From Lycium barbarum (lineage: Eukaryota > Streptophyta > Magnoliopsida > Solanales > Solanaceae): 64,000 bases of DNA. Where the stretch lies: the NCBI RefSeq assembly GCF_019175385.1, contig NC_083341.1:87570321-87634320 (forward strand), in the 5' to 3' direction. The notes under the pieces were generated by a model. That model saw only the letters and a program-made list of their open reading frames with translations, had not been told where the DNA came from and searched no databases. How positions within the stretch are numbered: the first letter of the stretch is position 1; the number at the start of each line of letters is the position of its first letter. Shown here in pieces: positions 13,202-35,700 of the stretch. Both the position numbers and the translations under genes were made by a program.

Positions 13202-13349
13202 GGGAAATGCTGCCGGAATTTCGGTAGCCAAGTATTATCTTAAGATTCCAATTCTAAATGCTCTAACCAAAGTTTGGTAAATATGACCAATTTGTAGATT
13301 GTGGCAGATTTGCAACTTGAATTTGGAATAGCATAAGGAGCGGAAAGAG
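13202..13349 (+). other. Exon-like LTR module in F
   Basis: 148 nt between the acceptor-like TATTTACAG ending at 13201 and the donor-like AGAG/GTATGTAAGG. It contains the near-palindrome CCGGAATTTCGG at its start. It is repeated in the 3' LTR from about 18660. See the matching modules at 5140, 8421, 20936 and 30832. Splicing is inferred, not shown. Confidence 0.4.
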
Positions 13350-14469
13350 GTATGTAAGGCTTCACCCTTCCTTCTATGGCATGTCTTAGACGTAATATGT
13401 TGGATATGAACCTCGGGGACAACTCTATTTTCCGGAATCCGCACTTAAATTTTCCCCTCTTTCATTCAGTAGAATTGAATTAGAAAGTGTGCGAAACGTT
13501 GGAAACACTTTCCAAACCTCTAGAACTTGCATAAATAGGACCCGACTACCTTTAAACCCTCACAAGTAACGCCATGACATATAATATATGTAAATTGTGC
13601 ACGCTACCTCATTCGGCCCGAGGTGGGCCCATTGTTCCCGGATTTTCCTTATTGTTTCGTTTGACTTATTTTGAAGCAGAATTCAAAGGAAACTTTTGAC
13701 TCTTGTCCCGATTATCAAACGATAAGTACCGTACCATTCTAATGGAAATATGTCTATGATAACCGTGATAACGATGATGCTAAGGAAGAGAATACGTCTA
13801 TGATAAGTATGACAAGAATGATTCCATGACTAAGAGTCTTAGGCTAAGGACCCAATGTGAATACGAAAGTATCAAACTAGTTCTTGATTTTTAATTCTAT
13901 TCCTTGGTTATGACACTATCTTCTAAAGATTTCAAAGGCATGATCCCCAAGTCGTAAAGTCTCAAATGTCTATGATAGATATGCTGACGATATGTTCCTA
14001 CTATGAATATGAAAATTTGACAATGTTAAATTATTTCTTGATATCTCAACTCTATTATGGGTAATGACTACTTTAGAGGTTCCAAGTATATGAAACGATG
14101 CCTTATGACCCTATTTTATGTTTTCTCATAATGACACTCTTCATTGATAGTCTCGCCTTATGATACTAGTTCCTTCAAGGTGAGACAAAGCGGTCACGGT
14201 TATACCATAATGTAATTGGAGGTCACCGACCTTACGTCACTCCGATGGATACATTGTTTTCTTTGGGCACTCCTGCATGCTTATATGACACATGTATATG
14301 AGATATGAATATGTACATGGGGTGGGGGAAGGGATACATGGGGGATGGGAAGGGAAACATGTTTCATTGCCACCTGGTCAGCTGGCTTATCATCCCGGAC
14401 GCGGGATATATGGGCGAGCCGATGTATTTCGGTGCTATGTGGGCTAGCCGACATTGTTCGGTGCTATGC

Positions 14470-14600
14470 TATGACCTGATATGATATGACATGATATGAT
14501 ATGACCTGATATGATATGACATGATATGATATGACACGATATGATATGACATGATCTCATAAGATATGATACTATATGACATGATATGATAAGGCATGAC
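14470..14600 (+). repeat. Short tandem repeat, ATGATATGAC type, in F 5' LTR
   Basis: Imperfect 5- and 10-bp repeats of ATGAT/ATGAC with occasional CCTG and CACG changes. The matching stretch in the 3' LTR is about 19927-20060. Confidence 0.85.
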
Positions 14601-15269
14601 ATGATATAAGTTCTATTTTCTATGTCTATGAAAAAGAAATGTTCTTTTTAAAGGGAAGGACAAGCATGCATGGTATCCGGCCTGAAAAGGGTATTCCTAT
14701 GTACAGGTTACTTTCTTGTACCACTATACGTCCTATGATCCCATGATATTGTTAATCATACCTTATGTTTCTGTTTGTATTATCTTCCATGCTTTACATA
14801 CTCGATACACTATTCGTACTGACGTCCCTTCTTGCGGACGCTGCGTTCCATGCCGCGCAGGTCAGCAGGTAGACAGACTTGACTCCTAGGAGCTTCATCA
14901 GCAGTATTGTAGCAGCGCTCCAGTTGTTCCGGAGCCTCAGTTTCTTGGTGCTATTTTGTGTATATATGTTTGGGCACGGCAGTACTCGGCCCTTCCTATG
15001 TATATGTGTACTATGTTTAGAGGCTCGTAGACAGATATGTACAGTTAGATGTTTTGTACTTTTGATGGTCCTCGTCACTGTGTAATGTGCTAGCAAAGTT
15101 TGCTAGCCTATGTTTATAATTATGCTGCTAATGTTAATGTTAAGCAGAAAAACAAAGTACGGTGATGTTCATACGGCCCACTTAGTAATAATAATGAGAT
15201 ACGAGTTAGGGGGGTGCTCGGTACAAGTATCGAGTACTCGTCACGGTCCTAGTTGGGTCGTGACAGAAG

Positions 15270-15282
15270 TGGTATCAGAGCC
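15270..15282 (+). other. Primer-binding site, element F
   Basis: TGGTATCAGAGCC lies 4 nt inside the 5' LTR end and matches the complement of initiator tRNA-Met over at least 13 nt. This confirms the 15265 LTR boundary. Confidence 0.92.
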
Positions 15283-15324
15283 GGCGGTCCTAGGGGTTTG
15301 TCTATGAGCCGTGTCCAGTAGAGT

Positions 15325-15364
15325 CCTGTTTATGGGTGTGTAGCGCGCCACACTTATAGACAGG
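15325..15364 (+). ncRNA. Leader stem-loop with GCGCGC loop, element F
   Basis: An unbroken 16-bp stem (C15325-G15364 up to G15340-C15349, including three G-T wobbles) closes the 8-nt loop TAGCGCGC, whose last six bases are self-complementary. It is the best-preserved copy of the leader hairpin seen in E, C and array B. The loop matches the type known for retroviral kissing-loop dimerisation sites. Function is inferred from structure and position, between primer site and ORF. Confidence 0.65.
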
Positions 15365-15476
15365 AGGCTGCAGGGCATTTAGGAAATATGACCTTCTTTG
15401 TACTCTAGATCGTGCGATAGAGCTATGCTACTAGGCTTCCTTATTCTCTTCCTAATCCTATGTTATGGTTTCAGTA

Positions 15477-16100
15477 ATGTCGATGAAGAGAGCAACTTCA
15501 GATAGTGGGGGCACCAAGAAGGCCCCTAGAGTATCTCCAGAGCCGAGTAAGGGGAGCCTCGGCTATTCGATTGAGACAGATCCGTCGGAGGACCCAGCCA
15601 CAATTCCTCCAGAGTTCCTGACTCCCAGAGCAGAGGATCCCGCGGAGGACAGCTATGATACAGATCCGTCGGAGGACCCAGCAACAATTCCTCCAGAGCT
15701 TCTGACCCCTAGAGTAGGGGATTCAACGGAGGGTGGCTATGATACAGATCCCTCGGAGGATCCGACGATGACTCCTCCAGAGCTTCTTACCTCCAGGGAG
15801 GAGGATAGTTACGACACAGACCCATCGGAGCATTCTTCCGGGACAACGGAGGAGGAGACTTCCGGGGATATGCCAGCTGCTCCTGTGATGGAGCACTATG
15901 TCAGTCAGGCCACCTCGGAGAGTGCTACGGACTACTCCTGTCCTTTGTCCTGGTCATCAGTGAACCAGGAATCGCCTGGTTATCTATACTCTTCCGATTC
16001 GGATGCAAGAAATGACGAGAGTCAAATGAGCGGAGAGCAGACAGACGAGGATGAGGAGCATACTTCACATGGCAGCTCCCCGGACCAGGCTCGAGATTGA
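15477..16100 (+). CDS. Element F acidic repeat protein (207 aa), unknown function
   Basis: The only substantial ORF of F, sitting where autonomous relatives have gag. I start at the ATG at 15477, just after an acceptor-like GGTTTCAG ending at 15474, the same arrangement as gag in B and C; an in-frame ATG at 15465 overlaps that acceptor. The N-terminus (Met-Ser-Met-Lys-Arg-Ala-Thr) resembles the Gag starts Met-Pro-Val-Lys-Arg-Lys-Ala-Thr and Met-Pro-Pro-Lys-Lys-Ala-Thr. It then diverges into Thr-Asp-Pro-Ser-Glu units recurring every 28, 28 and 24 residues. The rest is rich in Ser, Glu, Asp, Thr and Pro, with no capsid domain, zinc knuckle, signal peptide or membrane segment. It could be a remodelled Gag N-terminus or a protein with its own role. 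Element E lacks it. The frame is open, but expression is unknown. Confidence 0.6.
   Translation: MSMKRATSDSGGTKKAPRVSPEPSKGSLGYSIETDPSEDPATIPPEFLTPRAEDPAEDSYDTDPSEDPATIPPELLTPRVGDSTEGGYDTDPSEDPTMTPPELLTSREEDSYDTDPSEHSSGTTEEETSGDMPAAPVMEHYVSQATSESATDYSCPLSWSSVNQESPGYLYSSDSDARNDESQMSGEQTDEDEEHTSHGSSPDQARD
15576..15836 (+). repeat. 84-bp coding tandem repeat in the F ORF
   Basis: Three repeats of about 84 nt, each starting with codons for Thr-Asp-Pro-Ser-Glu (15576, 15660, 15744), and a shorter fourth from 15816. The frame is kept across all units. Confidence 0.85.
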
Positions 16101-16402
16101 TCGGCTACAGGTATATGAGATTTTCTTTGAAATTTTCTATGTATACGTAATCTTTGCAAAATACTAATTAGTGACGGCAGACAGAAATTCAAAAGGGGCC
16201 AAAGACTTAGCGGTTGTGAGTAATGGCGATTGAGATGTCTCCGCCACCAGTACGAATTTAGAAACCCCGGATAAAAGATAATCATATGTGTGGATGGGAG
16301 TAAATAGTGAAGATTTAAACAGAGGAAATATGGTAATTGTATGGTTAGGAAAGTGAAGATAGGAGTGGGACCCGCTGTGAGGACGTTTGGAAGTTGTTAG
16401 AA

Positions 16403-16443
16403 CCCCGACTTACCTTAAATTATGTGACAAAGGTCGTGCGGGG
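16403..16443 (+). ncRNA. Small hairpin just upstream of the 5S-like segment, element F
   Basis: CCCCG (16403-16407) can pair with CGGGG (16439-16443) across 31 nt; an AC/GT pair extends it inward past a short bulge. The element E copy is CCTCG (23128-23132) and CGAGG (23164-23168), again with 31 nt between. The T-A to C-G change is compensatory. The hairpin ends 4 nt before the 5S-like segment in both. Confidence 0.45.
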
Positions 16444-16447
16444 CAGT

Positions 16448-16546
16448 CGATATAATTATACCAGCATTCACGCATTTAAATGCACCAGAGTTTCGAGGTT
16501 AAGCGTGCTAAGGTGGGAGGATGGGTGACCCCCTGGGAAATATGCT
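16448..16546 (+). other. 5S rRNA-derived segment, element F
   Basis: Resembles plant 5S rRNA in sense orientation: an ATACCAGCA start region, then the box A core TTAAGCGTGCT at about 16499, then the box C core GGATGGGTGACC at about 16519 followed by CTGGGAA. Compared with the element E copy it has lost about 10 nt between boxes A and C and is rearranged around 16465-16495. It is not a working rRNA gene: the 3' third has no match and no T-run terminator follows. It is inside the internal region, not in the LTR. Confidence 0.8.
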
Positions 16547-17474
16547 GAAAATTTCGTAAATGTGGGAACAAGAGACGAATGTGAAATTAGGTAGCCTAAA
16601 GTAAATTAGAGTGTGTGAAGTGGTTAGAAACTCTATAGAAGTCGTGTAGGCTGAGACGGACTAGACCAGCAGAAGGAGAGAAAGCATGACAGAGCTTCAG
16701 GACTAAAGAAAGTTTGATTTGCTTTTGGAAGTGTTTGTAATAAAAAGAGTGGTGGAAATGTATATATGTACATGGCATCTTATCTGTGACGGTAGAACCC
16801 TAACAAACAGTGTCGCGATACATAGAACATGCTAGCTGGATTAAATTCGAAAGACGTGATGAAGGATATAAGTACGGATGTTATAGGGTAAGACCGATAT
16901 TGAATCCACACTAGTTAAGGTTAGAAATCTCTAATGCGGTGATATACGGGAACATACCTAGCAAGGGAATAGACGCACAAACTCAGCGAAGAAGGAATTA
17001 CAATTGTAAAAGATCGCGGAAGGCGACGATCATTTAAAAGGCATAGGCGTGTGCAGACCCTCTTAATGAAGGAAGGGAGAACGTGCTAGACCTAAAATGA
17101 ACTACGACGATTTAGACTTCATAAAAAGGGACCTAGTAACTCAGGACTAGAGTCTGAAGTATATTGGCGTATTGGGAAGGTTACGAAAGGACGTAAAAAT
17201 AAGTTGACAGCGGTTGTAATATGAGCTACAAGAGATACCTGGAAAGGTCACCGAATATAAACGACAACTGAGACGGCACTAGGTGAAGGATTGGTATAGT
17301 AAGATGTGTAAGTCATTAATCGGTTGGTTTGGTATTAGCGGAGCTGAGTCACTTGGCCGAAAGGCAGCCTAAGCTTCTAAAATGAATATACCGAGTGATC
17401 GTACGTGACGACCATAAGGGAGACACCCCCCCCCCCCCCCCCGAAGTATTGTAATACACTATGAGGCTAGTTTA
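16547..17474 (+). other. Element F internal non-coding region
   Basis: AG-rich sequence with frequent stops in all frames and no recognisable domain. The first 150 bp can be matched at low identity with the element E region after its 5S segment. A run of 17 C lies at 17426-17442. Confidence 0.6.
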
Positions 17475-17508
17475 ACATTCGAGGACGAATGTGCCAAGGG
17501 GGGGAGGA
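17475..17508 (+). other. Palindrome and polypurine tract, element F
   Basis: ACATTCG-AGGA-CGAATGT (17475-17492) is a perfect 7-bp inverted repeat with a 4-nt loop. The purine run 17496-17508 ends exactly at the 3' LTR and would prime plus-strand DNA. The same pair is found before the 3' LTRs of E, C, both B internals and the minus-strand element. Confidence 0.85.
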
Positions 17509-20500
17509 TGTTATATCCCGCATTTTTGTACAGTCGGATAATTCAAGACAATCGCGGGAAGACAACAAGCCAGGCCATATTTTTATCTTGTTAAGCATGA
17601 GAGTTGTTTATGAAAATTTTGAAGTGGGAATATTAAGAAAGGTCAAGGGCATAAAGGGAAATTCGCAATATGACTCGTGGAATTATGAAGGAAGACGAAG
17701 GGCAAATTTGGAAATTGGAAAATTAAAAATTTGTCATGAAGCACAACAAAAAAAAAAGGGAGTGGGCTTGATTTTTTTGGGGCCAAGGTTGGCTATCCAT
17801 CCTTCTTGATAGGCCAAGCCCATATGAGAATTAATGAATGGTTTAAAAGATGACCATTAAGTCATCTTTTCCTCATAACTCCCTAGAACATTCAAGAACA
17901 ACAAAAAAAAAAGGAGCAAAACTCCATAGGCCTCTCGGCCAAGGGCAAGAATTTCCAAGAGAATTGACAAAAAAATCCTTCAAAAATCATTTTCTACTAA
18001 TTTAAGGGCCCTTAACAAGGTGGAATGTTCATTGGAACAAGAAGATTTCATATTCTTGCAAGTTACAATTCTAGTCAAGTGGGGAGTCAAGAAGGAAGGT
18101 GAGAATCAATTTATTTTATGTGTTATAGGTGATTATGTATGTTGTAGTATGTAAAGGTTGATGAAATTCATGGAAATGTGGAAAACATGTTGTGGCCGTG
18201 AGTGTGTGGTGTGTATATGTGGCTGTGTATACATGATGTTTAGCCGTGTATATTGTGTGGAAATAAAGAGTCAATTCTACTTAGTAATTGGTTGTTGTTA
18301 AGTGGATTCTATGTTTCTAATAAAGGCGTAATGACCTTAGTGAAGTCGGTGTAGTTGGAAACTTGCTTTAGAGATTATGTAAATTGAAAATAATGTTCTT
18401 GCAAGTATGGAAGATAATGAGACTAGTGTGATGTTGTTGGTGTATGAACTATTAGGTTGTTATTGTTTTATTGAAGTTGGAAGGCTTTGAAGGAAATTGT
18501 ATATTGATTGAATTGTTAGAATGTACTTTGGGTTGGTTATCGAAATTGTTAGTATGGTTGTAGGCATTGTTGTTAATAATTTGGCCGGGTTGAATTCCCG
18601 GGATTGTTGTTGATTGAAATTGGCCAAGTTCAACTTGGTGGGATGGAGTATTTACAGGGGAAATGCTGCCGGAATTTCGGTAGCCAAGTATTATCTTAAG
18701 ATTCCAATTCTAAATGCTCTAACCAAAGTTTGGTAAATATGACCAATTTGTAGATTGTGGTGGATTTGCAACTTGAATTTGGAATAGCATAAGGAGCGGA
18801 AAGAGGTATGTAAGGCTTCACCCTTCCTTCTATGGCATGTCTTAGACGTAATATGTTGGATATGAACCTCGGGGACAACTCTATTTTCCGGAATCCGCAC
18901 CTAAAGTTTCCCCTCTTTCATTCAGTAGAATTGAATTAGAAAGTGTGCGAAACGTTGGAAAAACTTTCCAAACCTCTAGAACTTGCATAAATAGGACCCG
19001 ACTACCTTGAAACCCTCACAAGTAACGCCATGACATGTAATATATGTAAATTGTGCACGCTACCTCATTCGGCCCGAGGTGGGCCCATTGTTCCCGGATT
19101 TTCCTTATTGTTCCGTTTGACTTATTTTGAAGCAGAATTCAAAGGAAACTTTTGACCCTTGTCCCGATTATCAAACGATAAGTACCGTACCATTCTAATG
19201 GAAATGTGTCTATGATAACCGTGATAACGATGATGCTAAGGAAGAGAATACGTCTATGATAAGTATGACAAGAATGATTCCATGACTAAGAGTCTTAGGC
19301 TAAGGACCCAATGTGAATACGAAAGTATCAAACTAGTTCTTGATTTTTAATTCTATTCCTTGGTTATGACACTATCTTCTAAAGATTTCAAAGGCATGAT
19401 CCCCAAGTCGTAAAGTCTCAAATGTCTATGATAGATATGCTAACGATATGTTCCTACTATGAATATGACAATATGACAATGTTAAATTATTTCTTGATAT
19501 CTCAACTCTATTATGGGTAATGACTACTTTAGAGGTTCCAAGTATATGAAACGATGCCTTATGACCCTATTTTATGTTTTCTCATAATGACACTCTTCAT
19601 TGATAGTCTCTCCTTATGATACTAGTTCCTTCAAGGTGAGACAAAGCGGTCACGGTTATACCATAATGTAATTGGAGGTCACCGACCTTACGTCACTCCG
19701 ATGGATACATGGTTTTCTTTGGGCTCTCCTGCATGCTTATATGACACATGTATATGAGATATGAATATGTACATGGGGTGGGGGAAGGGATACATGGGGG
19801 ATGGAAAGGGAAACATGTTTCATTGCCACCTGGTCAGCTGGCTTATCATCCCGGACGCGGGATATATGGGCGAGCCGATGTATTTCGGTGCTATGTGGGC
19901 GAGCCGACATTGTTCGGTGCTATGCTATGACCTGATATGATATGACATGATATGATATGACCTGATATGATATGACATGATATGATATGACACGATATGA
20001 TATGACATGATCTCATATGATATGATACGATATGACATGATATGATAAGGCATGACATGATATAAGTTCTATTTTCTATGTCTATGAAAAAGAAATGTTC
20101 TTTTTAAAGGGAAGGACAAGCATGCATGGTATCCGGCCTGAAAAGGGTATTCCTATGTACAGGCTACTTTCTTGTACCACTATAGGTCCTATGATCCCAT
20201 GATATTGTTAATCATACATTATGTTTCTGTTTGTATTATCTTCCATGCTTTACATACTCGGTACACTATTCGTACTGATGTCCCTTCTTGTGGACGCTGC
20301 GTTCCATGCCGCGCAGGTCAGCAGGTAGACAGACTTGACTCCTAGGAGCTTCATCAGCAGTATTGTAGCAGCGCTCCAGTTGTTCCGGAGCCTCAGTTTC
20401 TTGGTACTATTTTGTGTATAAATGTTTGGGCACGGCAGTACTCGGCCCTTCCTATGTATATGTGTACTATATTTAGAGGCTCGTAGACAGATATGTACAG

Positions 20501-20721
20501 TTAGATGTTTTGTACTTTTGATTGTCCTCGTCGCTGTGTAATGTGCTAGCAAAGTTTGCTAGCCTATGTTTATAATTATGCTGCTAATGTTAATGTTAAG
20601 CAGAAAAACAATGTACGGTGATGTTCATACGGCCCACTTAGTAATAATAATGAGATACGAGTTAGGAGGGTGCACGGTACAAGTATCGAGTACTCGTCAC
20701 GACCCTAGTTGGGTCGTGACA
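17509..20721 (+). repeat. Element F 3' LTR, 3213 bp
   Basis: Near-duplicate of the 5' LTR, with about 50 differences by eye, ending GTCGTGACA. TSD GTTTT follows at 20722-20726. The first bases here are TGTTATATCCC, against TGTTGTATCCC in the 5' copy. Confidence 0.93.
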
Positions 20722-20726
20722 GTTTT

Positions 20727-22485
20727 GAATGTTATGTGAATTGAATTGAATAAAAATGAAATGTCGTTGAATTGTATGACAAAGGTTGTTAATGTTAGAA
20801 TGCATCTTGAATTGATTGTCGATGTTGTTGGTATGATTGATGGCGTTGTTGTTGATAGTTTGGCCGAGTTGAATTCTCGGATTGTTGATTGATGATTTGG
20901 GCCGAGTTAGATTCTCGGGGATGGTGTATTTACAGGGAAGATGCTGCCGAAATTTCGGCAGACTATAAATGAATTCATTTAAAGGATTAAGACAAGTATA
21001 TGGTGATGAATCTAATGATTGCGTCAATCTTCTTGAATGTAGACTAGCGATAACGAGCTTGGACAATTAAGCGTAGCGAATAGGACGTGGAACAGGTATG
21101 TTAAGGCTCGTCCCTTTTCTCTCAAGGCATGAATTCGATGCTATGATTTCATAATTGTCTCCACATTTTCCTTGTTTTAAAAGGTTAGATGTCTATGATT
21201 CTAAGGAATGATTCCCTTCCCGATAACTCGTAAATGTTTTTCCAAAGTGTCCGTATTTTTTTCCAAAATAAAGGTTTATGGTATCGTAAGCTTTTATGAC
21301 AGTAACGATGGATATGTTTTACAATGGCATTGATGATGTCGAGGATGAGAGTATTTCTATGATGACTATGATAAGAATGATTTCATGTTCGAAAGGTACC
21401 TGATATGAGGATTGCTTTGCTTTTCCAAAAATAGCTTCTGAAACCTTCATAGAAGGTCCTGTACTTCAAACGCTCATAACTTTCTTATACTAAATCGGAT
21501 TGACCAGAAACTTGTTTCTGAGCCTTCAGGTGTCGGTTTATGTACGCTGTTATTCATTGCTAGTCTCATCTTATAATAATTGTTCGTTCAAGGTGAGACA
21601 AAGTCATGATGATTGTCCCATAATGTAATCGGAGGTTACCGACCTTACGTCACTCCGATGGATACATGACTTTCTTTGGGCTCTCCTGCATGCTGCTTAT
21701 ATGATGTATGTATATGTATATGTATATGTATATGGGGAAGATGGGGAAAAGGTAGATATGTTGCGCTATAGACGCATTACCACCTAGTCAGTTGGCGTAA
21801 CTTTCATCCCAGACGCGGGATATATGTGGGGGAGCCGACGTTGTTCGGCGCTATGACATGTTCTATTTTCTATGTATATGAAAAAGAAATGTTTTCAAAG
21901 AAAGCCAAGCATGCATGGCATCCGCCTAAGAGGCACTCAGATGTACAGGTTACTCTTTTATCTCATGATATGCTCTATATCTCTATTCTGTTGTTGTTCA
22001 TAATTACATCTCTTACTATGTTACTATTCATGCCTTATATACTCGGTACATTGCTCGTACTGACCCCCTTTCTTTGGGGGGGCTGCGTTTCATGCCGTGC
22101 AGGTACACCCAGATGAGCTGAAGCTATTATAAAAGACGTTCCAGCGGAGTTGGCAAGCTCCACTTGTTCCTGGAGTGCTGCCGAGTCAGAGTATGTGTGC
22201 TATGATGTCTGATTAATGTTAGAGACTTTGCAGACAGAGTCGTGGGTTTAGGATATCAGTCTTGTAAGCGGCTCCACCAGCCGATGTGTCCTTATGTATT
22301 ATGACTCAGATTCTGTTTAATTTGAGCACGATGAAAAGGAAGTTTCTGAAAGCTGTACTATCTATTTCATCTTTATTTGATTTAAAAGTCCAAAAGATTA
22401 TGTGTGTACTAAGGGTCAGAGGGTTCGCTCGGCCCTAAGTAAGGGTCGGGTGCCCATCACGCCCTAGGGAGATTAGGGTGTGACA
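20727..22485 (+). repeat. Element E 5' LTR, part 2
   Basis: Resumes E's LTR after F and ends GTGTGACA at 22485. It contains an exon-like module at 20936-21095 (160 nt, palindrome CCGAAATTTCGG near its start), an ATCGGAG...CTCCGAT inverted repeat near 21628-21660, and the GTACTG motif of the LTR 3' part near 22057. No gene. Confidence 0.9.
20936..21095 (+). other. Exon-like LTR module in E
   Basis: 160 nt between acceptor-like TATTTACAG (ends 20935) and donor-like AACAG/GTATGTTAAGG. It holds the CCGAAATTTCGG palindrome. It is slightly longer than the 147-148 nt of the S1, C and F modules. Confidence 0.35.
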
Positions 22486-22488
22486 AAG

Positions 22489-22500
22489 TGGTATCAGAGC
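22489..22500 (+). other. Primer-binding site, element E
   Basis: TGGTATCAGAGC, complementary to the initiator tRNA-Met 3' end, 4 nt inside the LTR boundary. Confidence 0.92.
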
Positions 22501-22543
22501 GGGTTGTCCTAGGGGTTGTCTTCAAAGTCGTGTCCAGTAGACT

Positions 22544-22583
22544 CCTGTTTATGGGTGTGAAGCAGGCCACATTTATAAACAGG
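22544..22583 (+). ncRNA. Leader stem-loop, element E (non-palindromic loop)
   Basis: An unbroken 16-bp stem (C22544-G22583 up to G22559-C22568), like that of F, but the 8-nt loop AAGCAGGC is not self-complementary. One G-T wobble replaces a G-C pair of F, so pairing is kept despite base change. Confidence 0.55.
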
Positions 22584-23127
22584 AGGCTGCGGGGCATCTA
22601 GGGATTGTTGACCTTCTTTCTGTCTTAGATCGTGCGATTGAGCCAAGTCATAGGAGGAAGAAATTCCTTACGTAAGCCTTATATACGACGGAAGAAGGTG
22701 AGAAGCGATATAGAAAGTCACAGGGGTAAGCATTGATATTCGTTCTGCTACTTGGAACTGGAAGTTCTGGATGGCTGAAATGTGTCATATAGCCGTATGT
22801 TCTATGAGGTATTGTCGATATTTGCTGCGTACAGATCTTGAGTAGTAGGAGTGGTAAAGGAGGTTCTACCAGAATGGGTACGCATAACAGGAAGAAGCGT
22901 GGAAAGGAAATACTATAAATAGACAATAAGTGAGATGCGTTGATTCAGAAAGGTTATGGATTTGGCATGGCGATGAAGGTGCGAACACTACCATCGGGAA
23001 TCTAGGAATCCAGGACGAAAGATAGTTATGCACGTAAGCGAAAGATGAAGGTTGAGGGTCGAAAGGGGTAAAATAGTAATTGTAAAGGAGAAAGACGTGT
23101 TACGAGAGTGTCTCGAGATCTGTAAGA

Positions 23128-23168
23128 CCTCGACTCGCCCCAGATCATGAAATAAAGGTCATGCGAGG
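23128..23168 (+). ncRNA. Small hairpin just upstream of the 5S-like segment, element E
   Basis: CCTCG (23128-23132) pairs with CGAGG (23164-23168) across 31 nt. Inside, CATGA and TCATG could form a second short stem. It is the counterpart of 16403-16443 in F, with a compensatory pair change. Confidence 0.45.
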
Positions 23169-23172
23169 AAGT

Positions 23173-23292
23173 GGACGCGATTATATCAGCATTAAGGCAC
23201 CGGATTCCATCGAAGTTACGAGGTTAAGCGTGCTAAGGTGGGAGAAATTTTAGGATGGGTGACCTCCTGGGAAGTATGTAAGAAATTCTATA
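23173..23292 (+). other. 5S rRNA-derived segment, element E
   Basis: Aligned without any gap to a plant 5S rRNA recalled from memory, about 79 of the first 100 positions match. Strong blocks are GGCACCGGAT, GGTTAAGCGTGCT (box A core) and GGATGGGTGACCTCCTGGGA (box C). Many differences are C-to-T or G-to-A. The last 15-20 nt do not match, and no T-run terminator follows. Orientation is the same as the retrotransposon. It is a pseudogene-like derivative, yet with 5S spacing kept. Confidence 0.88.
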
Positions 23293-24248
23293 TATCCAGA
23301 CATAAGAGACAAAGGAGGCGTTAGAGTAACCTAAGGGAAACTAGAGTATACGGAATGGCTGGAAACTTTAAGAGGTCGCGTAAGACAAGGTAGGCTAGAC
23401 TGGAGAAGAGACAGAAAGTGCGTTACCGGCGCTACGGTAAAGAAGACATTAATCAAGTAAGGGTATCGAAGTTTGAGTGGCAGCAAAAATAAATGGTACA
23501 AGTGTTACAAGGTAAGCTGCTATTATTTTTACTACAGGTTAAGATTGGAAAGTTCTAATACAGCGATATTTGGAAAAGAACGAGAGTGAGTAGATGGAAA
23601 ATAAGGAGATCAAAGTGTCGGAAGAAGGTGAAAGGTAAGAAACCTCAGTGAGTGAAGCCTCAAGAGAAACTACCGGCAAAAGCATGAGACTATTGGGATA
23701 AAAATTCAAAGGTAGGCACGCGAAAAGGATAAAGTGTGGTTATATAGAACAAAAGAGGAATGTGTGAGGTTCGAGAACCGATTTCAATAAGTGGGGCTAA
23801 AGGAATAGTGACTAGGATAGGGGGATGTGAAGTAAGAGAAAGAATTCTTAGGCCTTGTGATGATGTTAAGGCGAGAGATATATAAAAGAATAAATGTGTA
23901 CCATAGTTAAAGGTTCGATGAACAAGGGTACGGAGAGTGAAAGCTGTAAGGATTCTGTGCTAAGAACAAATGTAGCGGGACGCTTGAGAAATATGGACGC
24001 ACAGCTACAACACAAACACGTAGTTAAAGAAGAATTATGAGCAAATGAGCTACGCAAGTGAAAGGACAAATAGTGGATGGAAGGGTATGGAAATGTGGAC
24101 AAAATGATGACATAGACAGAAAGTAAAAGAAAAACTTAGGATAAGAAGTTTTTGATATGTTAGGCACAGAGTGGGAAGGAAGATGAGGAATAAGGTATAA
24201 ACGAAGACTTCATAAAAGGATTGTTGGCATATAAGGAGCCCCTTAAAA

Positions 24249-24265
24249 GGGGGGGGGGGGGGGGG
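24249..24265 (+). repeat. Run of 17 G in element E
   Basis: Homopolymer in the internal region. Element F has a run of 17 C (17426-17442) in its own 3' internal region. Exact lengths may be sequencing-limited. Confidence 0.9.
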
Positions 24266-24888
24266 ACCATATTATATTAGGCCAAAAAGGGATCACAATA
24301 TTTTCAAGTACTAGAAAAGGAAACTTATTAGTTCGAGGCCAAAGTTTAAATATGTCGGTATATCGGGAGTAAGTAAAGAATGTCTCGAACGACGACGACT
24401 ATTATAACGAAAGTATCCATAATTGGTAGTCTGAGAATTTTTGAAATAAAGAAAGAACGTAGTGCCTATGAATGAAACAAAAGAGTTCATCGGACACTAG
24501 AGAATAGTTCATGGACCATTAATTGTACGGAGCATGAGAATATACGCTATGGAATTGTATGAATCATCTACGTGAAGCGATACTCAATCATGATTGTAGG
24601 GGATCCACACCGGAGAGCAAACAAGAAATAACGATGGATGAAACGAGCGCCAATACAAAGAAATCAAAGACAAGTATACTTGTGTCAAAAGATGACCTGG
24701 GAAGGACAAGGATAATAAGTTGGCGCAATGGATTAGAAAACCAATGACACGGAACGAGGACTCATGTAAGGACTGAGGAGTTCGATGATAAAGAAAATAA
24801 GGTAAAGGATAAGGAATGGGTATGAAGAAAAGGACAACTATAGAAGGGACCCTCCCGAAGGATTACAACACCCCATGAGATCAGTTGA

Positions 24889-24923
24889 ACATTCGAGGAC
24901 GAATGTTCTAAAGGGGGGGAGGA
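24889..24923 (+). other. Palindrome and polypurine tract, element E
   Basis: ACATTCG-AGGA-CGAATGT at 24889-24906, then the purine run 24910-24923 abutting the 3' LTR. Confidence 0.85.
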
Positions 24924-27824
24924 TGTTATATCCCGTATTTTATACATTCGGATATTTCAAGGTAGTCGTGGTAAGTTAAGGGAATGACCATCTTCCAAAA
25001 TTATTTTAATGTACAAGTTGGTTATGAATATTATTTATGAACATTATTAGTATGGAAATATTGAAAAAGGCTAAAGGGTAAAAAGGGAAATTCACAAAGT
25101 GGTTGATGAAAATATTGTGGAAGACTAGGGGCAAAATGGGAATTTCATAAAACTTCAAGAAATTTATGAAATGGGCCAAGGTGGCCGGCCAAGGTAGATA
25201 TGGGCTTTGGCCCATATGGACCAATAATATGTGTAGTCAAAAATGACAAATTAGGATATAATTATCCTTTATTTTAAGAAGTTTCAAGAAAAAAGGAGAA
25301 GGGGGCATGTGTCCCCTTATAATTTGTTGGAGCTAATTATATATATAGGCCAATGCTTACAAGGCAAGACAATTTCATCTTCCAATTTAGGAATATGAAG
25401 AGGGAAATATGGTAGGGTTCGGCCAAGGCTCCAAAAAATTGAGCCATGGAAATTGATCAAGAAAAATTATTTTCTTCTAGTATTTCCACCAAATGGAAGG
25501 TCCTTATTAACATGAAGGAGTTGTTGGAGCAAGAAAAGCCTTTATTTGTGTAATTCACAAGCTCTAGCCGAGTGAAGAAGTTGGGTGAGAAAGGTATGTG
25601 TTCCACTCTCTTTTACATATGTTGTGGGTGGTTTATGCATGTTGTTGTATGAAGAAATGGATGAAATTCATGTGATATATATGTGTGTGGGTGTTGGCCG
25701 AATAGTAGCTAGGTGGGTGTAGAAGTGATGAATTAATTTTATTTAGTAGTTTGATTGTTGTGTTGTGGATTCCATGATGTAAAATGAAGGTTTGGAGGCT
25801 CGAAATGAATTTGAAATTGTTTGTGCATTATTGAAGAAGTTAGTGTGATAATTAGTATGGTTTCTTATATTTTATGAATGATGTTGTTAATGTGTAGGTT
25901 GTAAATACAATTCATGAATTTGGAAGTGAGACATATGTTGGAAGATTGTAAGTTGGGTTGTGGTGATTGAATTTGAAAGAAGGAAATAAGTTGTTATTGT
26001 TATTGTTGAATTCGGAAGGTGTCGGGTGAAGTAGTGTGTTGATTGAGTCGTTTTGAATGTTATGTGAATTGAATGGAATAAAAATGAATTGTCGTTGAAT
26101 TGTATGACAAAGGTTGTTAATGTTAGAATGCGTCTTGAATTGATTGTCGATGTTGTTGGTATGATTGATGGTATTGTTGTTGATAGTTTGGCCGAGTTGA
26201 ATTCTCGGATTGTTGATTGATGATTTGGGCCGAGTTAGATTCTCGGGGATGGTGTATTTACAGGGGAGATGCTACCGAAATTTCGGCAGATTATAAATGA
26301 ATTCATTTAAAGGATTAAGACAAGTATATGGTGATGAATCTAATGATTGCGTCAATCTTCTTGAATGTAGACTAGCGATAACGAGCTTGGACAATTAAGC
26401 GTAGCGAATAGGACGTGGAACATGTATGTTAAGGCTCGTCCCTTTTCTGTCAAGGCATGAATCCGATGCTATGATTTCATAATTGTCTCCACATTTTCCT
26501 TGTTTTAAAAAGTTAGATGTTTATGATTCTAAGGAATGATTCCCTTCCCGATAACTCGTAAATGTTTTTCCAAAGTGTCCATATTTTTTTACAAAATAAA
26601 GGTTTATGATATCGTAAGCTTTTATGACAGTAACGATGGATGTGTTTTACAATGGCATTGATGATGTCGAGGATGAGAGTATTTCTATGATAACTATGAT
26701 AAGAATGATTTCAAGTTCGAAAGGTACCTGATATGAACATTTCTTTGATTTTCCAAAAATAGCTTCCGAAACGTTCATAGAAGGTCCTGTACTTCAAACG
26801 CTCATAACTTTCTTATACTAAATCGGATTGACTCGAAACTTGTTTCTGAGCCTTCAGGTGTCGGTTTATGTACGTTGTTATTCATTGCTAGTCTCATCTT
26901 ATAATAATTGTTCCTTTAAGGTGAGACAAAGTCATGATGATTGTCCCATAATGTAATCGGAGGTTACCGACCTTACGTCACTCCGATTGATACATGACTT
27001 TCTTTGGGCTCTCCTGCATGCTGCTTATATGATATATGTATATGTATATGGGGAAAAGGGAGATATGTTGCGCTATAGACGCATTGCCACCTAGTCAGTT
27101 GGCGTAACATTCATCCCGGACGCGGGATGCCCGGACGTGGGATATATGTGGGGGAGCCGACGTTGTTCGGCGCTATGACATGTTCTATTTTCTATGTATA
27201 TGAAAAAGAAATGTTTTCAAAGAAATCGAAGCATGCATGGCATCCGCCTAAGAGGCACTCAGATGTACATGTCACTCTTTTATCTCATGATATGCTCTAT
27301 ATATCTCTATTCTGTTGTTGTTCATAATCACATCTCTTACTATGTTACTATTCATGCCTTACATACTCGGTACGTTGCTCGTACTGACCCCCTTTCTTCG
27401 GGGAGGGGGGGGGGAGGGGGCTGCGTTTCATGCCGCGCAAGTACACCCAGATGAGCTGAAGCTATTATAGAAGACGTTCCAGCGGAGTTGGCAAGCTCCA
27501 CTTGTTCTTGGAGTGATGCCGAGTCAGAGTATGTGTGGTATGATGTCTGATTAATGTTAGAGACTTTGCAGACAGAGTCGTGGGTTTAGGATGTCAGTCT
27601 TGTAAGCGGCTCCACCAGCCGATGTATCCTTATGTATTATGATAACAGATTCTGTTTAATTTGAGCACGATAAAAAGGAAGTTTCTGAAAGTTGTACTAT
27701 GTATTTCATCTTTATTTGATTTAAAAGTCCAAAAGATTATGTGTGTACTAAGGGTCAGAGGGTTCGCTCGGCCCTAAGTAAGGGTCGGGTGCCCATCACG
27801 CCCTAGGGAGATTAAGGTGTGACA
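24924..27824 (+). repeat. Element E 3' LTR, 2901 bp
   Basis: Unbroken copy of E's LTR, ending GTGTGACA, followed by TSD GTATA (27825-27829). It preserves the pre-insertion sequence at F's target (around 26049). A G-rich stretch near 27400-27420 is expanded relative to the 5' LTR. Confidence 0.93.
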
Positions 27825-29589: not shown

Positions 29590-29894
29590 TGTTATGTTCC
29601 ATGTTTTTGTATAATTGGAAATCGAGAAATAATTAAGATTTGTGTGTTATAAGGAAATATTTTGATTTTAGTGAATATGACTATGTTGATTATGGAATCA
29701 TTAATGTTAAGACATCGGGGAAGGCCGAGGGTAAATTTGGAATTTCGGAAATTAGTTTCGGGAATTACAAAACGGGACTTTTTATGAATTGGGCCAAGAA
29801 AATATGACACAAAATTGAGGCCCAAAGTATTGAGGGTGGCCGGCCATAGCAATGGCCCAAACCCATCCTTTTAATGTCATGTGCTAGGCACATG

Positions 29895-29916
29895 ACCAAT
29901 AATATGGATATATATC
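29895..29916 (+). promoter_or_regulatory. CCAAT and TATA-like promoter in C LTR
   Basis: A CCAAT motif is followed about 10 bp later by a TATATAT run in the 5' part of the LTR. It is repeated in the 3' LTR at about 37997-38018. Transcription would start shortly downstream, placing U3 in roughly the first 340 bp. Confidence 0.5.
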
Positions 29917-30831
29917 ATCTTACACTTAGAATTATCAAGAACAAAGAACAAAATTCAAGAGCACCACAAAAGAGGGCTTCGGCCGAGACTAAGAAAGAGA
30001 GAAAAAGAAAATTGTGCTAGCCTTGTTTGAGGTCCAAAAATCCTAGTTTCTACATAGTTGTGAAGTACTCAAGACCCTCTTCAACGGGGTATAATTAGTT
30101 TGGCACAAGAACCACGTTTGCGGCAAGTCAGATTTTCAAGAAAAAGGTGAGAAATCTATGTTTTTATGTTATGAAATGGGTTTATATGTTATAGTGATTG
30201 ATGTTGCATGAAGATTATGGAATGGTGTTGTGTTTGTGCATGGCGTGTGTGTGTGAGAAGGGTGTGTTTGGCCGTGAGCCCTAGGAGGGAGAAAGAATGT
30301 GAATTTGATCTTGTTTAGTTTGTTTAATGCGTCGTTGTGACCTTTATGTGGTAAATGATTAGTTAATGAATTGATTTGGCATTGGAAAATGATTTCGGAA
30401 CGTTATCGGAAAGTATACACCTTTAGTATATTTGTGTATATCATTGTATATCTAGGGTGCTAAAGACCTTAAATATGATTTATGGTTGATGTTAAGGAAT
30501 TCGGAATGAAGCGACGCAAGTTAGAATGTTCGTCGTGACTTTTGATGTTTTGAATGAAATATGGAAAATAATGCATTTCGGGAACTTTCGTATATGGTTT
30601 GGAATATAATTGGGATGTGATTGAATAATCTTGAATGATTGAATGAATACAATAATGTGGATATAGATTTGGAATTTTGAAGCTTGAATGAAAAGTTGCC
30701 AACTTATGTAATAAGGTAGAATTTTGAAGTTAGTATGGTTTGAATATGATGTGTGTTGTTTGATGATGTGTGGGCTGTAGTTGTTGATGTATTTTGAGCC
30801 GAGCTAAGTCTCGGGGGTGTTAAATTTATAG

Positions 30832-30978
30832 GGGAAATGCTGCCGAAATTTCGGTAGGCAAAAATGAAGTTAATGTCATTTTTTTAAGTCTAAGGATCTC
30901 AAATTGGTAACTTTGACCATTTGCAGATTTCGGACGGAACGGGACTTGACTTTTGGGAGAGCATAAGACGTCAGTAAG
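30832..30978 (+). other. Exon-like LTR module in C
   Basis: 147 nt between acceptor-like TTTATAG (ends 30831) and donor-like AGTAAG/GTATGTAAAGC. It carries the CCGAAATTTCGG palindrome near its start; the 3' LTR copy has one change in it. Confidence 0.4.
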
Positions 30979-31949
30979 GTATGTAAAGCTTCCCACTTCT
31001 TCGTTTGGCATGTCTTAGTGTGTTAGGTGAATTTTGGAACCTCCGGAGCCTTTCTGCTCCTCGAAACCCGATCTACAAAACGACTATTATTCATTCAATT
31101 CAATTGAAGCCTAAAGGCTCTATTTTGGCTAGAATGCAACCAAATGTTCGAAACCTATCGAAATGTGATCGGGTTACTTTGAAATCATTATGTATAATCT
31201 TCTGGCCTTTAAATGTTCGTAAATTATGTTTGCCACCTCAATTTGACTCGAGGTGGGCCCGCTAACCCCGAGACGCCCTATTTGTCCTATTGGGCGATCC
31301 TTTTGAATAAAGCTTGATATGATACTTTCAGTTTTGGAACTTCCTCCCACGAGATATGTATTGAATATTATGATATGCTAAGTTACGTTTTGAGCCATAC
31401 GTACCATTTTGGGAAACATCTTGTGAAATAAAACTTTGTATCAACTAAGTATTCGGTTATTTTGTACTATGAAATGACTTATGAAATCATTATGTTTTGA
31501 AAGGCTATTTTGAAATATGATTTGCATTTGTTCGCTCACGACTCCGCTCGTGCCTTACTATGACTTCGTTCACCGGTTCCCGAGCCGGTTATGATTCGTG
31601 CGCCTTATGATAATTCGGCCGTATGCTGTGTTCCGGTTCCCGAGGCCTCGCCATAGGGCCGGGTTCCGTTTGGCGTTATGCTGTGATATGGCTCGTGATG
31701 TGATACGCTCACCTATGTTGTGTTTGTGTTCGGGGATGTACGGAGTTTTGAAACCTTCTGGTGTTATGCTGTGTGTGGCGCCAGCGTCGGAGTGGCGACC
31801 ACGTTCTTAAGCGTTTGCATGATTTCATTTGCATTATGTATACGTATATGATTTTGATACGGATTTTGACATACTGATTTGTACTCCACTTTGTCATCTG
31901 ATTTGCTTTCGGTTTTGGCCCATATTTCTGTACTCCGTGCTTTACATAC

Positions 31950-31970
31950 TCAGTACATATTTCGTACTGA
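31950..31970 (+). other. Conserved TCAGTAC / GTACTGA inverted repeat in C LTR
   Basis: A perfect 7-bp inverted repeat (31950-31956 with 31964-31970) and a 7-nt loop, followed by a pyrimidine-rich stretch and GCCCGCAGGT. Related copies lie in D (50711-50731), B, S1, E and F LTRs. Confidence 0.5.
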
Positions 31971-32523
31971 CCCTTTTTCTCCGGGGGCTGCGTTTCATGC
32001 CCGCAGGTGCAGATATTGGTGATCCTCCACTGTAGGCTTCACTCTTTGCTACTTCGGAGTACTCCTTCTTGACTCGGAGTCCACTTTTGGTACAGACTCC
32101 CTTTTGCTATGTATATTCTGTACATTTGACTATTTGGGTACGGCGGGGCCCTGTCTCGTCATATGTCTTTGTTTTGAGTTCGTAGAGGCCTGTAGTCATA
32201 TATGTGGGGCGAGGGTCCTATATATGTTTGTCTGATTTTGTTTTCTGGTCTTAAAGCGGTCCGTTTGTTTTGATGGCCCTGAATGGCCCTTATGCTTATA
32301 TTTGCATTTTTGACCGGCGATGTCTATTCCGCCGCTCAGTTTGGATCCGATATGACATTTTGATTTGTGCGACCGCTTAAGACATATTTTGATATAAACT
32401 ATGTTTGATATGACTTTTATGAAATTCTGAAATAAGTTTGGATTTGGCAATGAATATGTAATTTGGTCTGGGTACCCAAGTAGGGTGCCAGTCGCGGCCC
32501 ACGGGGCTGGGTCGTGACAAAAG

Positions 32524-32535
32524 TGGTATCAGAGC
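32524..32535 (+). other. Primer-binding site, element C
   Basis: TGGTATCAGAGC, complementary to the initiator tRNA-Met 3' end, 4 nt inside the LTR. Confidence 0.93.
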
Positions 32536-32575
32536 AGTTTGTCCTCAGAATGTATACAGGCCGTGTCTCGTAGAG

Positions 32576-32617
32576 TCTTGTTTATCGATGTGTTGTGCAC
32601 CACATCTATAAACAGGA
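32576..32617 (+). ncRNA. Leader stem-loop with GTGCAC loop, element C
   Basis: A 17-bp stem with one mismatch (C32586 with T32607) and one wobble closes the loop TTGTGCAC. Its last six bases are self-complementary but differ from the GCGCGC of B and F. A palindrome kept while its sequence changes suggests loop-loop pairing matters. Confidence 0.62.
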
Positions 32618-32722
32618 AGCTACAGGGCATTTAGGATGTTACTTTCTTTGGAATCTTAGATCGTGCGATAGAGCTGTGCTGTTAGGGTGATTTTGATCTG
32701 ACTCGCTATTGTGTTTGCAGTG

Positions 32723-35700
32723 ATGCCTCCGAAGAAGGCAACGGCGGCCCAGAAGGGCAAAGCGAGGATGGGAGAGACTAGTCAGGCACAGCGATCTACC
32801 CGAGCTCGTGTCTATGATTTTCCTGAGGTTGTGCCTCGTTCTGAGGGGTCCGCTACACCCCCACTAGTACAGCCTGGAGCAGGACCTTCAGCAGCTCCAG
32901 AGGTCCGTGTACCCGCTCCTGAGACTCCAGCTCCTCAGCCAGGGGCGGAGGATAGGACCCTGAGGCAGGCTGTACAGTTGTTGACTACACTAGTAGCAGG
33001 TCAGGCTCGCAGACACGGGCGGAGGGACGAGGATGACGATGACAGGCGGGACAGCCTGAGAGTTCGGGAGTTTCTATTATGTGGCCCTCCAGAGTTTTTC
33101 GGGTCTAAGCCCGATGAGGACCCCCATGACTTTATTCGGGGGATGCGACGCTCACTGGACTTGGTCAGGGTTTCAGAGACCGAGTCGGTCGAGCTGGCTT
33201 CGCACAGACTTCGAGATGTTGCCACCCATTGGTACGAGACTTGGGAGCTGTCTAGGGGAGAGGGTGCCCCTCCAGCCACTTGGGATCAGTTTGTGACTGC
33301 TTTCACCCGCCACTTTCTGCCCCCAGAGTTACGGTGGGCGCGGGCTGATCGATTCTTACGTCTGCAGCAGAGGGGTCGGAGTGTTCGCGAGTATAATCTT
33401 GAGTTTGATTCTCTGGCCCGATATGCACCGGCCGTGGTAGCAGATATGTCCGATCGGATGCACAGATATGTTATGGGATTGGATCGGTATTTGGTTGATG
33501 GCTGTATGGCAGTATCATTGCAGACAGACATGGACATTGCCCGACTCCAGGCCTATGCGATGGGTATGGAGGACCGTCGCAGGTCTGATCCTTCTGGCAG
33601 AGATCGAGATAGGAGGCCGCCCAAGAGGACTAGGTCCGCAGGCTATTCTGGAGATTCTCGAGGCGGACAGCCTCAGCAGCAGCAGTCAGATAAACCTTTT
33701 CCTCCGTCCGGCCGGAGTACTCAGTCAGGTAGCCGGAGATTTGACAGTGCAGGACCATCTGGGGCCGGTCAGGGCTCCAGAGCGGCAGGTTCACAGGTAT
33801 CCAGGGGTCCCAGCCAGGCCAGACCACCCAGGCCCAGTTGTCCTCATTGCGGGAAGTCTTATCCTGGGGAGTGTTATCGAGCTACTGGAGCTTGCTTTTC
33901 TTGTGGTGGTCAGGGCCACTTTATGAGAGACTGTCCGTTGGCGAGCGGTTCTGGTAGTGTGGCTCAGCTGACAGGGTCAGCCGCCGGTTCTTCTTCTGCT
34001 CCATCTGTTGCACGCCCTGGAGGGCGAGGTATGCCAGCATCGGCAGGACGCGGTCGAGGCCGCGGTGGCGTTTCAGGTTCTAGCGGTCCCTCGAACCGCA
34101 TATATGCTTTGGCCAGCCGCCAGGATCAGGAGGCTTCGTCAAACGTCGTCACAAGTACATTACTAGTTTTCTCTAGGTCTGTATATGCATTGATTGACCC
34201 TGGCTCTACTTTATCATATATTTCCCCGCTCGTTGCTAGTAAAATTGGGATAGTGTCTGAGCCTATAGAGCCATTTGAGGTAGCTACGCCAGTTGGGGAT
34301 TTTGTTATAGCGAGACAGATCTATAGAGATTGTTCTGTGACCATTTATGATCGTAGCACTAAGGCTGATTTGATATAGTTAGACATGCTTGAGTTTGACG
34401 TCATTATGGGTATGGACTGGTTGTCTTCCTCTTATGCTAATGTCGACTCCCAGAAAAAGGTAGTCCGTTTTCAGTTTCCAGGGGAACCAGTTATAGAGTG
34501 GTTCGGATCTACAGCATCGCCGAGGGGTAAGTTTATTTCATACCTCAAGGCTAAGAAGATGATCCAGAAGGGTTATATCTATTATTTGGTTCGTGTGCAC
34601 GATACTGCAGCGGAGATACCTCCCCTTCAGTCTGTTCCGGTCGTCAGTGAGTTTCCAGATGTTTTTCCTGACGAGCTTCCTGGCCTTCCGCCTGAGCGAG
34701 AGATTGATTTTACTATAGAGTTGATGCCGGATACGCAACCTATATCTATTCCTCCGTACAGGATGGCACCGGCTGAGTTGAAAGAGTTGAAGGAGCAGCT
34801 GAAAGATTTGTTGGATAAGGGCTTTATCAGACCCAGCACATCACCCTCGGGAGCGCCGGTATTGTTTGTCAGAAAGAAAGATGTGTCATTGCGGATGTGT
34901 ATCGACTACCGGCAGCTAAATAAGGTGACTATAAAGAATAAATATCCCCTCCCCCGGATTGATGACTTGTTTGATCAGCTGCAGGGTGCTAAATATTTTT
35001 CGAAGATAGATCTGCGCTCAGGTTATCATCAGGTGCGAGTACGGGAGTCAGACATCCCGAAGACCGCTTTCAGGACCCGGTACGGGCATTATGAGTTCAG
35101 AGTTATGTCTTTCGGGCTGACTAATGCTCCAGCGGTATTTATGGATCTGATGAACCGGGTATTTCGGCCTTTTCTGGATATGTTTGTCATTGTGTTTATT
35201 GATGATATCTTGATTTACTCGCGATCAGCCGAGGAGCATTCAGATCATTTGAGGACGGTACTTGGCGTTCTCCGTCAGCAGAAGTTATATGCTAAATTCT
35301 CCAAATGTGAATTCTAGTTGACTTCTGTGGCATTCTTGGGCCATATTGTCGGTGCAGACGGTATTTGGGTCGATACGCAGAAGATTGAGGCTGTGCAGAA
35401 TTGGCCCAGGCCTACTACTCCGACAGAGGTGCGCAGCTTTCTTGGATTGGCCGGGTATTATCGCAGGTTCGTGGAGGATTTTTCTTCTATTGTAGCACCA
35501 CTGACGAGGCTTACCCAGAAAGCAGCAAAATTCCAGTGGACAGATGCCTGTGAGCGCAACTTTCAGATGCTGAAGGAGAGATTGATTACAGCACCAGTTT
35601 TGGCTCTTCCAGAGGGATCTGACGGGTATGTTGTCTATGGTGACGCCTCTGGTATGGGGATAGGTTGTGTATTGATGCAGCACGGTCGAGTTATAGCCTA

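What the first reader, a model, noticed from the sequence alone, without database searches (positions are those of the whole stretch)
23173..23292. 5S rRNA-derived module inside the internal region of two non-autonomous retrotransposons
Elements E (23173-23292) and F (16448-16546) both carry a sense-strand 5S rRNA-like segment between leader and polypurine tract. In E it aligns gap-free with plant 5S rRNA, about 79 of 100 positions, with intact spacing between the internal promoter boxes; F keeps boxes A and C. The flanking internal sequence of E and F is much more diverged than these boxes. Established knowledge: Cassandra TRIM elements carry 5S sequence in their LTRs, and land-plant TFIIIA genes carry a 5S mimic. 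An internal-domain 5S module in large gag-less elements is, as far as I know, different. It might recruit TFIIIA, ribosomal protein L5 or Pol III, affect nuclear export or packaging, or be a captured relic under weak constraint.
Basis: partly seen in the sequence, partly recalled or inferred. Interest (0 to 1): 0.88.

Follow-up and report, generated by a model that had tools for sequence, protein, structure and literature searches.

The report
5S rRNA piece inside retrotransposon interior
Two related mobile elements in a plant that looks like a goji relative (Lycium) carry an old piece of the 5S ribosomal RNA gene in their middle, and the parts of it known as promoter boxes have changed far less than the DNA around them.

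Summary
Element E carries a sense 5S rRNA-derived segment: 82 of 103 positions match plant 5S ungapped; Rfam RF00001 gives 35.7 bits (E=1.3e-5 locally, below the cutoff of 38). F carries the homologous segment, 9 nt shorter between box A and box C; alone it is not significant by RF00001 (13.5 bits), but it shares 11 derived letters with E. E and F are structurally complete 8.2 and 8.7 kb gag-less LTR elements with 5-bp target duplications, sharing primer site, leader hairpin and pre-PPT palindrome with a gag-pol element in the window. Their LTRs are 66% identical, yet nt 47-70 (box A) agree at 24/24 and nt 80-103 (box C) at 22/24, against about 60% in flanks. In the interior only leader hairpin, the 5S cores and the PPT palindrome reach this level. 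Seven database ORFs show further copies, seen as protein only; 5 of 7 imply E's box spacing. Much of the 5S fold and its 3' end are lost and coding is unlikely, so a DNA-level TFIIIA/Pol III-box role is my best guess, unproven; an RNA role stays open. A start there lies downstream of the PBS, so it cannot make genomic RNA as in Cassandra.

The parts
23173..23275 (+). 5S rRNA-derived module of E (5S nt 1-103)
   Evidence: 82/103 ungapped matches to plant 5S; RF00001 35.7 bits at 23179-23288
23219..23242 (+). conserved core 1 of E, 5S nt 47-70 (box A and start of IE; box borders recalled)
   Evidence: 24/24 identical to F; six of these letters are shared by E and F and differ from 5S
23252..23275 (+). 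conserved core 2 of E, 5S nt 80-103 (box C)
   Evidence: 24/24 identical to canonical 5S, 22/24 to F
16448..16541 (+). homologous 5S-derived module of F, with 9 nt missing between boxes
   Evidence: E/F alignment; local score 39 to 5S at 16518-16539
16494..16517 (+). conserved core 1 of F (box A)
16518..16541 (+). conserved core 2 of F (box C)
10921..27824 (+). element E, 8.2 kb without the nested F; TSD GTATA at 10916-10920 and 27825-27829
24924..27824 (+). 3' LTR of E; the 5' LTR is 10921-12050 plus 20727-22485
12051..20721 (+). element F, nested in the 5' LTR of E; TSD GTTTT at 12046-12050 and 20722-20726; LTRs 12051-15266 and 17509-20721
22486..22500 (+). PBS of E (contains TGGTATCAGAGC; tRNA-Met type recalled)
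22526..22602 (+). conserved leader hairpin of E, shared with F and D
   Evidence: folds at -40.5 (E), -40.2 (F), -33.5 (D) kcal/mol
24882..24923 (+). palindrome AACATTCGAGGACGAATGTT and polypurine tract of E
   Evidence: conserved in F and, with a one-letter variant in D, in the gag-pol elements
15456..16100 (+). non-gag ORF of F (acidic repeats)
   Evidence: 24 database relatives; the 13 named ones are Lycium; no Pfam match
29590..40621 (+). element D, structurally complete gag-pol Ty3-type element whose coding frames are interrupted; possible relative of the helper
   Evidence: LTRs, TSD; gag, protease, RT, RNase H, integrase zinc-binding and SH3 matches above cut-off, chromodomain and integrase core below it; frames in pieces

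Best explanation
A 3'-truncated 5S rRNA sequence (nt 1-103) was captured long ago, in sense orientation, into the internal domain of a gag-less lineage of large LTR elements related to chromovirus-type Ty3 elements. It has been inherited through at least two diverged subfamilies (E and F), each with an insertion dated by LTR divergence to roughly the last 1-1.5 million years (the divergence is shown, the rate is assumed). Its box A/IE and box C cores are held by selection as cis-acting sequence, at the level of leader hairpin and PPT (conservation shown for E against F, selection inferred). The most likely use, inferred, is at the DNA level: the boxes bind TFIIIA (and so TFIIIC/Pol III), giving a short sense internal transcript of some 350 nt in E and/or an open chromatin site that helps the element stay expressed. 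It cannot be the promoter of the genomic RNA, because a start at 23173 lies downstream of the PBS.
For: 5S identity. Nesting and TSDs show two separate, structurally complete insertions; LTR K2P is 0.016 for F and 0.026-0.034 for E, while E and F LTRs are 66% identical, K2P 0.48. Only leader hairpin, the two 5S cores and the PPT palindrome reach 22 of 24 identity in the E/F interior alignment. Core 1 is identical at synonymous positions too and core 2 continues past the stop of the frame, so not coding. Six of seven further copies, seen as ORFs, keep the codons RLSVLRWE of box A/IE, and 5 of 7 imply the box A to box C spacing of E. The contrast holds, more weakly (p=0.011), for E and the five copies that share five or more words with the queries outside the box by my script's count. 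Helix I keeps 3/9 and helix V 3/5 pairs in E, helix V 2/5 in F; fold z-scores are 0.4 and -0.8. First T4+ run downstream is at 23526 in E and 16723 in F.
Against: F, a recent insertion, lacks 9 nt between the boxes; passages of PMC10853983 say spacing looks mandatory in Cassandra. Box A of E is 12/15 and IE 4/6. P0027 has a residue in place of the stop inside box C, which implies a changed letter there. Nt 8-22 are also conserved (13/15) though I know of no promoter box there; helix II pairs are kept 6/7 and helix III pairs 5/6 in both, helix IV 7/8 in E and helix I 6/9 in F, which hint at an RNA role. No expression data. Family copies were seen only as translated ORFs, and the word search favours copies that keep box words.
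Confidence: 0.43

Rival explanations
1. RNA-level cis signal: the 5S-like stretch in the long genomic RNA binds TFIIIA, L5 or a retroelement protein and aids export or packaging of an RNA without gag.
For: Sense orientation; position between leader and PPT; nt 8-22 conserved 13/15; of the pairs that I named, helix II 6/7 and helix III 5/6 can form in both E and F, helix IV 7/8 in E, helix I 6/9 in F. No 5S match above the random range in the gag-pol elements of the window.
Against: No fold better than shuffles (z 0.4 and -0.8); helix I 3/9 in E, helix V 3/5 and 2/5, helix IV 4/8 in F; the sequence of nt 23-46 is 13/24 alike; F lacks nt 71-79.
Confidence: 0.29
2. Relic without function: a captured 5S fragment, with box similarity kept by chance, by recombination between subfamilies or by ascertainment.
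For: 5S 3' end lost, 9-nt deletion in F, nt 1-7 and 23-46 of the module as diverged as flanks.
Against: 46/48 against 241/402 in flanks, Fisher p about 1e-7; the shared non-5S letters exclude fresh copying from rDNA for core 1; E and five copies sharing words outside the box still show the contrast.
Confidence: 0.22
3. Part of a protein-coding exon (peptide ...RLSVLRWE...).
For: Open frames of 62-162 aa in seven database ORFs.
Against: Stops upstream in the same frame in E and F; synonymous positions of core 1 identical and conservation runs past the stop; no Pfam match for P0027, the one tested.
Confidence: 0.03
4. Remnant of a 5S-derived SINE (SINE3 type) or of a Cassandra LTR inserted in an ancestor (a claim on origin, not on use).
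For: 5S starts at nt 1 and ends at nt 103, as a SINE head followed by an unrelated body would; PMC10886601 (abstract and passages) proposes a SINE origin for related elements.
Against: No SINE tail or inner target duplication was looked for. Template switching onto 5S RNA during reverse transcription would leave the same ends (inference).
Confidence: 0.03

Closest known systems
Cassandra TRIM elements (plants)
   Same: Non-autonomous LTR element with sense 5S sequence; boxes conserved, spacers between boxes variable (PMC10853983, passages)
   Different: Cassandra has 5S in its short LTRs and relies on it for Pol III transcription (PMC10853983 and PMC7215508, passages); here LTRs are 2.9-3.2 kb without a 5S match and the module is internal, downstream of the PBS
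Ajax / TRIMp3 (PMC10886601, abstract and passages)
   Same: 5S-derived promoter part in a non-autonomous LTR element, not folding as 5S
   Different: In the LTR, miniature element, nemerteans
LARDs (large retrotransposon derivatives; PMC7215508, passages)
   Same: LTR element with a core domain but no gag-pol; long LTRs, PBS, PPT
   Different: I know of no 5S module in LARDs; F has its own ORF
5S mimic exon of land-plant TFIIIA genes (recalled)
   Same: 5S-derived sequence outside rDNA with conserved parts
   Different: That is an RNA-level exon in a host gene (recalled); here the overall fold is not kept and the L5-type region has drifted in sequence, though helix III pairs can still form

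Membership tests
Cassandra TRIM | 5S sequence within the LTRs | tested here: not met
   Best 5S scores in the window are at 23173-23275 and 16518-16539, both internal; the next (29, at 11687-11715, in E's 5' LTR) lies within the random range
Cassandra TRIM | miniature size, short LTRs | tested here: not met
   E 8.2 kb, F 8.7 kb, LTRs 2.9-3.2 kb
Cassandra TRIM | Pol III transcript from 5S | not testable with these tools
   no expression data
LARD | complete LTRs, PBS, PPT, 5-bp TSD | tested here: met
LARD | no gag-pol coding | tested here: met
   no interior ORF of 150 aa or more in E; F has one, without a Pfam match
LARD | conserved interior across many copies | tested here: inconclusive
   E, F and seven database ORFs; the ORFs cover the module and some upstream sequence only
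Functional 5S rRNA gene | full length and 5S fold | tested here: not met
   last 16 nt match at 1/16; helix I 3/9 pairs in E, though helices II-IV 6/7, 5/6, 7/8; below the Rfam cutoff
Type 1 (5S) Pol III promoter | box A, IE, box C with fixed spacing | tested here: inconclusive
   E: 12/15, 4/6, 18/18 with spacing intact; F: 9 nt missing

The most novel reading that the evidence does not exclude
A class of large non-autonomous LTR elements uses an internal 5S-derived TFIIIA/Pol III box pair as a cis-acting element that its autonomous relatives lack, producing a short Pol III RNA or a Pol III-type chromatin site inside a Pol II-transcribed retrotransposon.
Probability: 0.33. Interest if true: 0.8.

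Novelty: new variant of a known kind. Interest (0 to 1): 0.62.

Why it matters
In the papers whose passages I saw, 5S capture by LTR elements is reported for the LTRs of miniature elements, where it supplies the promoter of the genomic RNA. A constrained 5S box pair in the interior of 8-kb elements cannot do that job, so it points to another use of TFIIIA/Pol III boxes or of 5S-like RNA by retroelements. It is testable with existing Lycium genomes and small-RNA data. It also warns genome annotators of a source of 5S pseudogene calls.

Tried and rejected
L5-binding mimic: put behind, not excluded; the sequence of nt 23-46 has drifted (13/24) while 5 of 6 helix III pairs can form. Coding exon: rejected on synonymous identity and stops. 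Long-range pairing of the cores with the rest of the interior: no perfect complement of 9 to 11 nt in E or F. DNA relatives: exact-pattern scans of viral contigs and genome contigs found none; the protein-pattern scans hit 17 stretches of viral contigs and 52 of genome contigs, none confirmed by tblastn. This says little, as these are viral and prokaryote collections. The genome search 'own' did not complete, so copy number and a true DNA family alignment are missing. Literature: seven searches for 5S in non-autonomous or plant LTR elements and two with Lycium terms listed no paper that, by title and start of abstract, describes an internal 5S in a large LTR element; three lists were cut (15 of 16, 12 of 38, 15 of 43). 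The library is open-licence PMC only. On rechecking I moved 0.02 of confidence from the DNA reading to the RNA reading, because helix III pairs kept in both elements had been left out; I also withdrew the word 'intact' for D, whose frames are interrupted.

Full report
OBSERVATION. The segment is real. The local score is 104; the best in 100 random 64-kb sequences from a second-order Markov model of the window is 33. RF00001 gives 35.7 bits, E=1.3e-5 for 701 nt and 3.4e-4 for 18 kb, but stays below the gathering score 38, so the window-wide curated scan is empty. F scores 39, at 16518-16539 in the strict alignment, which 0 of 100 random sequences reach, and 13.5 bits, E=3 with RF00001. On its own F would be doubtful; its alignment with E settles it.

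ANATOMY. Self-comparison and target duplications resolve a nest. F (12051-20721, TSD GTTTT, LTRs 98.4% identical) sits in the 5' LTR of E (10921-27824, TSD GTATA, LTR parts 97.4% and 93.8% identical by blastn). By its flanks, which match 42801-46406 and 46401-48194, E sits in the gag region of a gag-pol element. D (29590-40621, TSD GTAGC, LTRs 98.9%) carries gag, protease, RT, RNase H, integrase zinc-binding and SH3 domains above Pfam's cut-off, an integrase core below it (22.1 bits, cut-off 32.6) and a chromodomain just below it (24.0 bits, cut-off 25.1). Its frames are interrupted. E, F and D share PBS, leader hairpin and the AACATTCG(A/G)GGACGAATGTT-type palindrome before the PPT. That D-like elements mobilise E and F is inferred from this; the lineage name Tekay/Del is recalled.

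CONSTRAINT. E and F LTRs are 66% identical over 2482 aligned sites, K2P 0.48, while each element's own LTRs differ by K2P 0.016 (F) and 0.026-0.034 (E). So these are two old lineages, each with a recent insertion (0.6 and 1.0-1.3 My at an assumed 1.3e-8 per site per year). In the E/F interior alignment, 5S nt 47-70 are identical at 24/24 and nt 80-103 at 22/24. Nt 8-22 agree at 13/15, nt 23-46 at 13/24, nt 1-7 at 2/7. Flanks agree at 124/204 and 117/198. The two cores against flanks give Fisher p about 1e-7. Stretches with at least 22 of 24 identity are only the leader hairpin, the two 5S cores and the PPT palindrome (outside the homologous blocks the two interiors align poorly, and F's ORF region has no counterpart in E). 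Leader hairpin and palindrome recur in the gag-pol elements; 5S does not, no other place among the 12 best listed scoring above the random range. E and F share 11 letters that differ from canonical 5S, six of them in nt 47-70, so the module was inherited and core 1 was not copied anew from rDNA.

MORE COPIES. A protein search with F's ORF found 24 proteins of 370 candidates; the 13 named ones are Lycium barbarum and L. ferocissimum, the other 11 unnamed ENA entries. This suggests the window's origin; it is not proof. Searches with the sense frame through the module found 2 of 24 and then 7 of 194 candidates, all unnamed ENA ORFs on short contigs, the first two included in the seven. Six of seven keep the codons RLSVLRWE of box A/IE; P0029 keeps LSVLR and then departs, probably by a frame shift. 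Five of seven contain WEQF-x-DG, which by translation implies the spacing of E to box C; P0025 stops before it and P0029 has departed. In one of the five, P0027, the frame runs on through box C (W in place of the stop), so one letter of box C is changed there. Mean pairwise residue identity over the nine sequences, aligned by hand: 0.97 in box A/IE codons, 0.58 in the 5S head, 0.58 upstream. The search favours copies that share box words. With E and the five copies sharing at least five words outside the box by my script's count (one of P0028's five overlaps the box edge) the values are 0.96, 0.76 and 0.70, permutation p=0.011. P0030 and P0031, with only three and two such words, were dropped there, and so was F. 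The DNA of these copies was not seen, and their species are unknown.

WHAT IT DOES. Not a 5S gene: the last 16 nt match at 1/16, helix I keeps 3/9 pairs in E, helix V 3/5 in E and 2/5 in F, and folding is no better than shuffles (z 0.4 and -0.8). But not all pairing is gone: helix II 6/7 and helix III 5/6 can form in both, helix IV 7/8 in E and 4/8 in F, helix I 6/9 in F (the pairs were named by me from complementarity in the plant 5S). Not coding: core 1 is identical at synonymous positions, core 2 lies past the stop, and there are stops upstream in the same frame in E and F. Not a promoter of genomic RNA: a start at 23173 is downstream of the PBS at 22486. What remains is a DNA-level box pair or an RNA-level signal. 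The cores coincide with box A/IE and box C (borders recalled; names in PMC10853983, passages). In E box C is 18/18, box A 12/15 and IE 4/6. Against this, F lacks 9 nt between the boxes, while PMC10853983 reports no larger indels between boxes in Cassandra and infers that spacing is mandatory. The conservation of nt 8-22 and of helix II and III pairs fits an RNA role better. I put the DNA reading first at 0.43 and the RNA reading at 0.29. The exact 5' end (nt 1) and missing 3' end would fit capture of 5S RNA by template switching, or a 5S-SINE head; both are inference.

KNOWN. Cassandra and Ajax carry 5S in their LTRs (PMC10853983, PMC10886601, PMC7215508: passages, and abstracts as printed). 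PMC4717578 (passages) states that no 5S was found in the other TRIM families of its survey. PMC4524691 (passages) mentions that nine unknown potato repeat families matched Rfam entries, 5S among them, without saying where in the repeat; some could be relatives. PMC7076952 on pepper elements (passages) treats 5S rDNA and Tekay/Del elements apart. No paper listed by my searches describes, by title and start of abstract, an internal 5S module in large LTR elements; the library is partial.

Noticed in passing
15456-16100: F encodes a 214-residue frame of acidic repeats (YDTDPSEDP type) placed where gag starts in D. It has 24 database relatives, the 13 named ones from Lycium, and no Pfam family; one relative is annotated RPB1-like, perhaps because of the repeats.
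   Followed up: partly
22520-22605, 15301-15386, 32550-32640: Long leader hairpin just after the PBS, conserved between gag-less E and F and gag-pol D; could be the packaging or dimer signal used in trans.
   Followed up: partly
24891, 17477, 42768, 59918 (minus strand): Palindrome ATTCGAGGACGAAT directly before the polypurine tract in these elements; D has a one-letter variant.
   Followed up: partly
14417-14666 and 19873-20122: 15-nt tandem repeats (TATGACATGATATGA type) in both LTRs of F.
   Followed up: no
22643-24880: By eye, not computed: the interior of E looks purine-rich on the sense strand, with few T runs.
   Followed up: no
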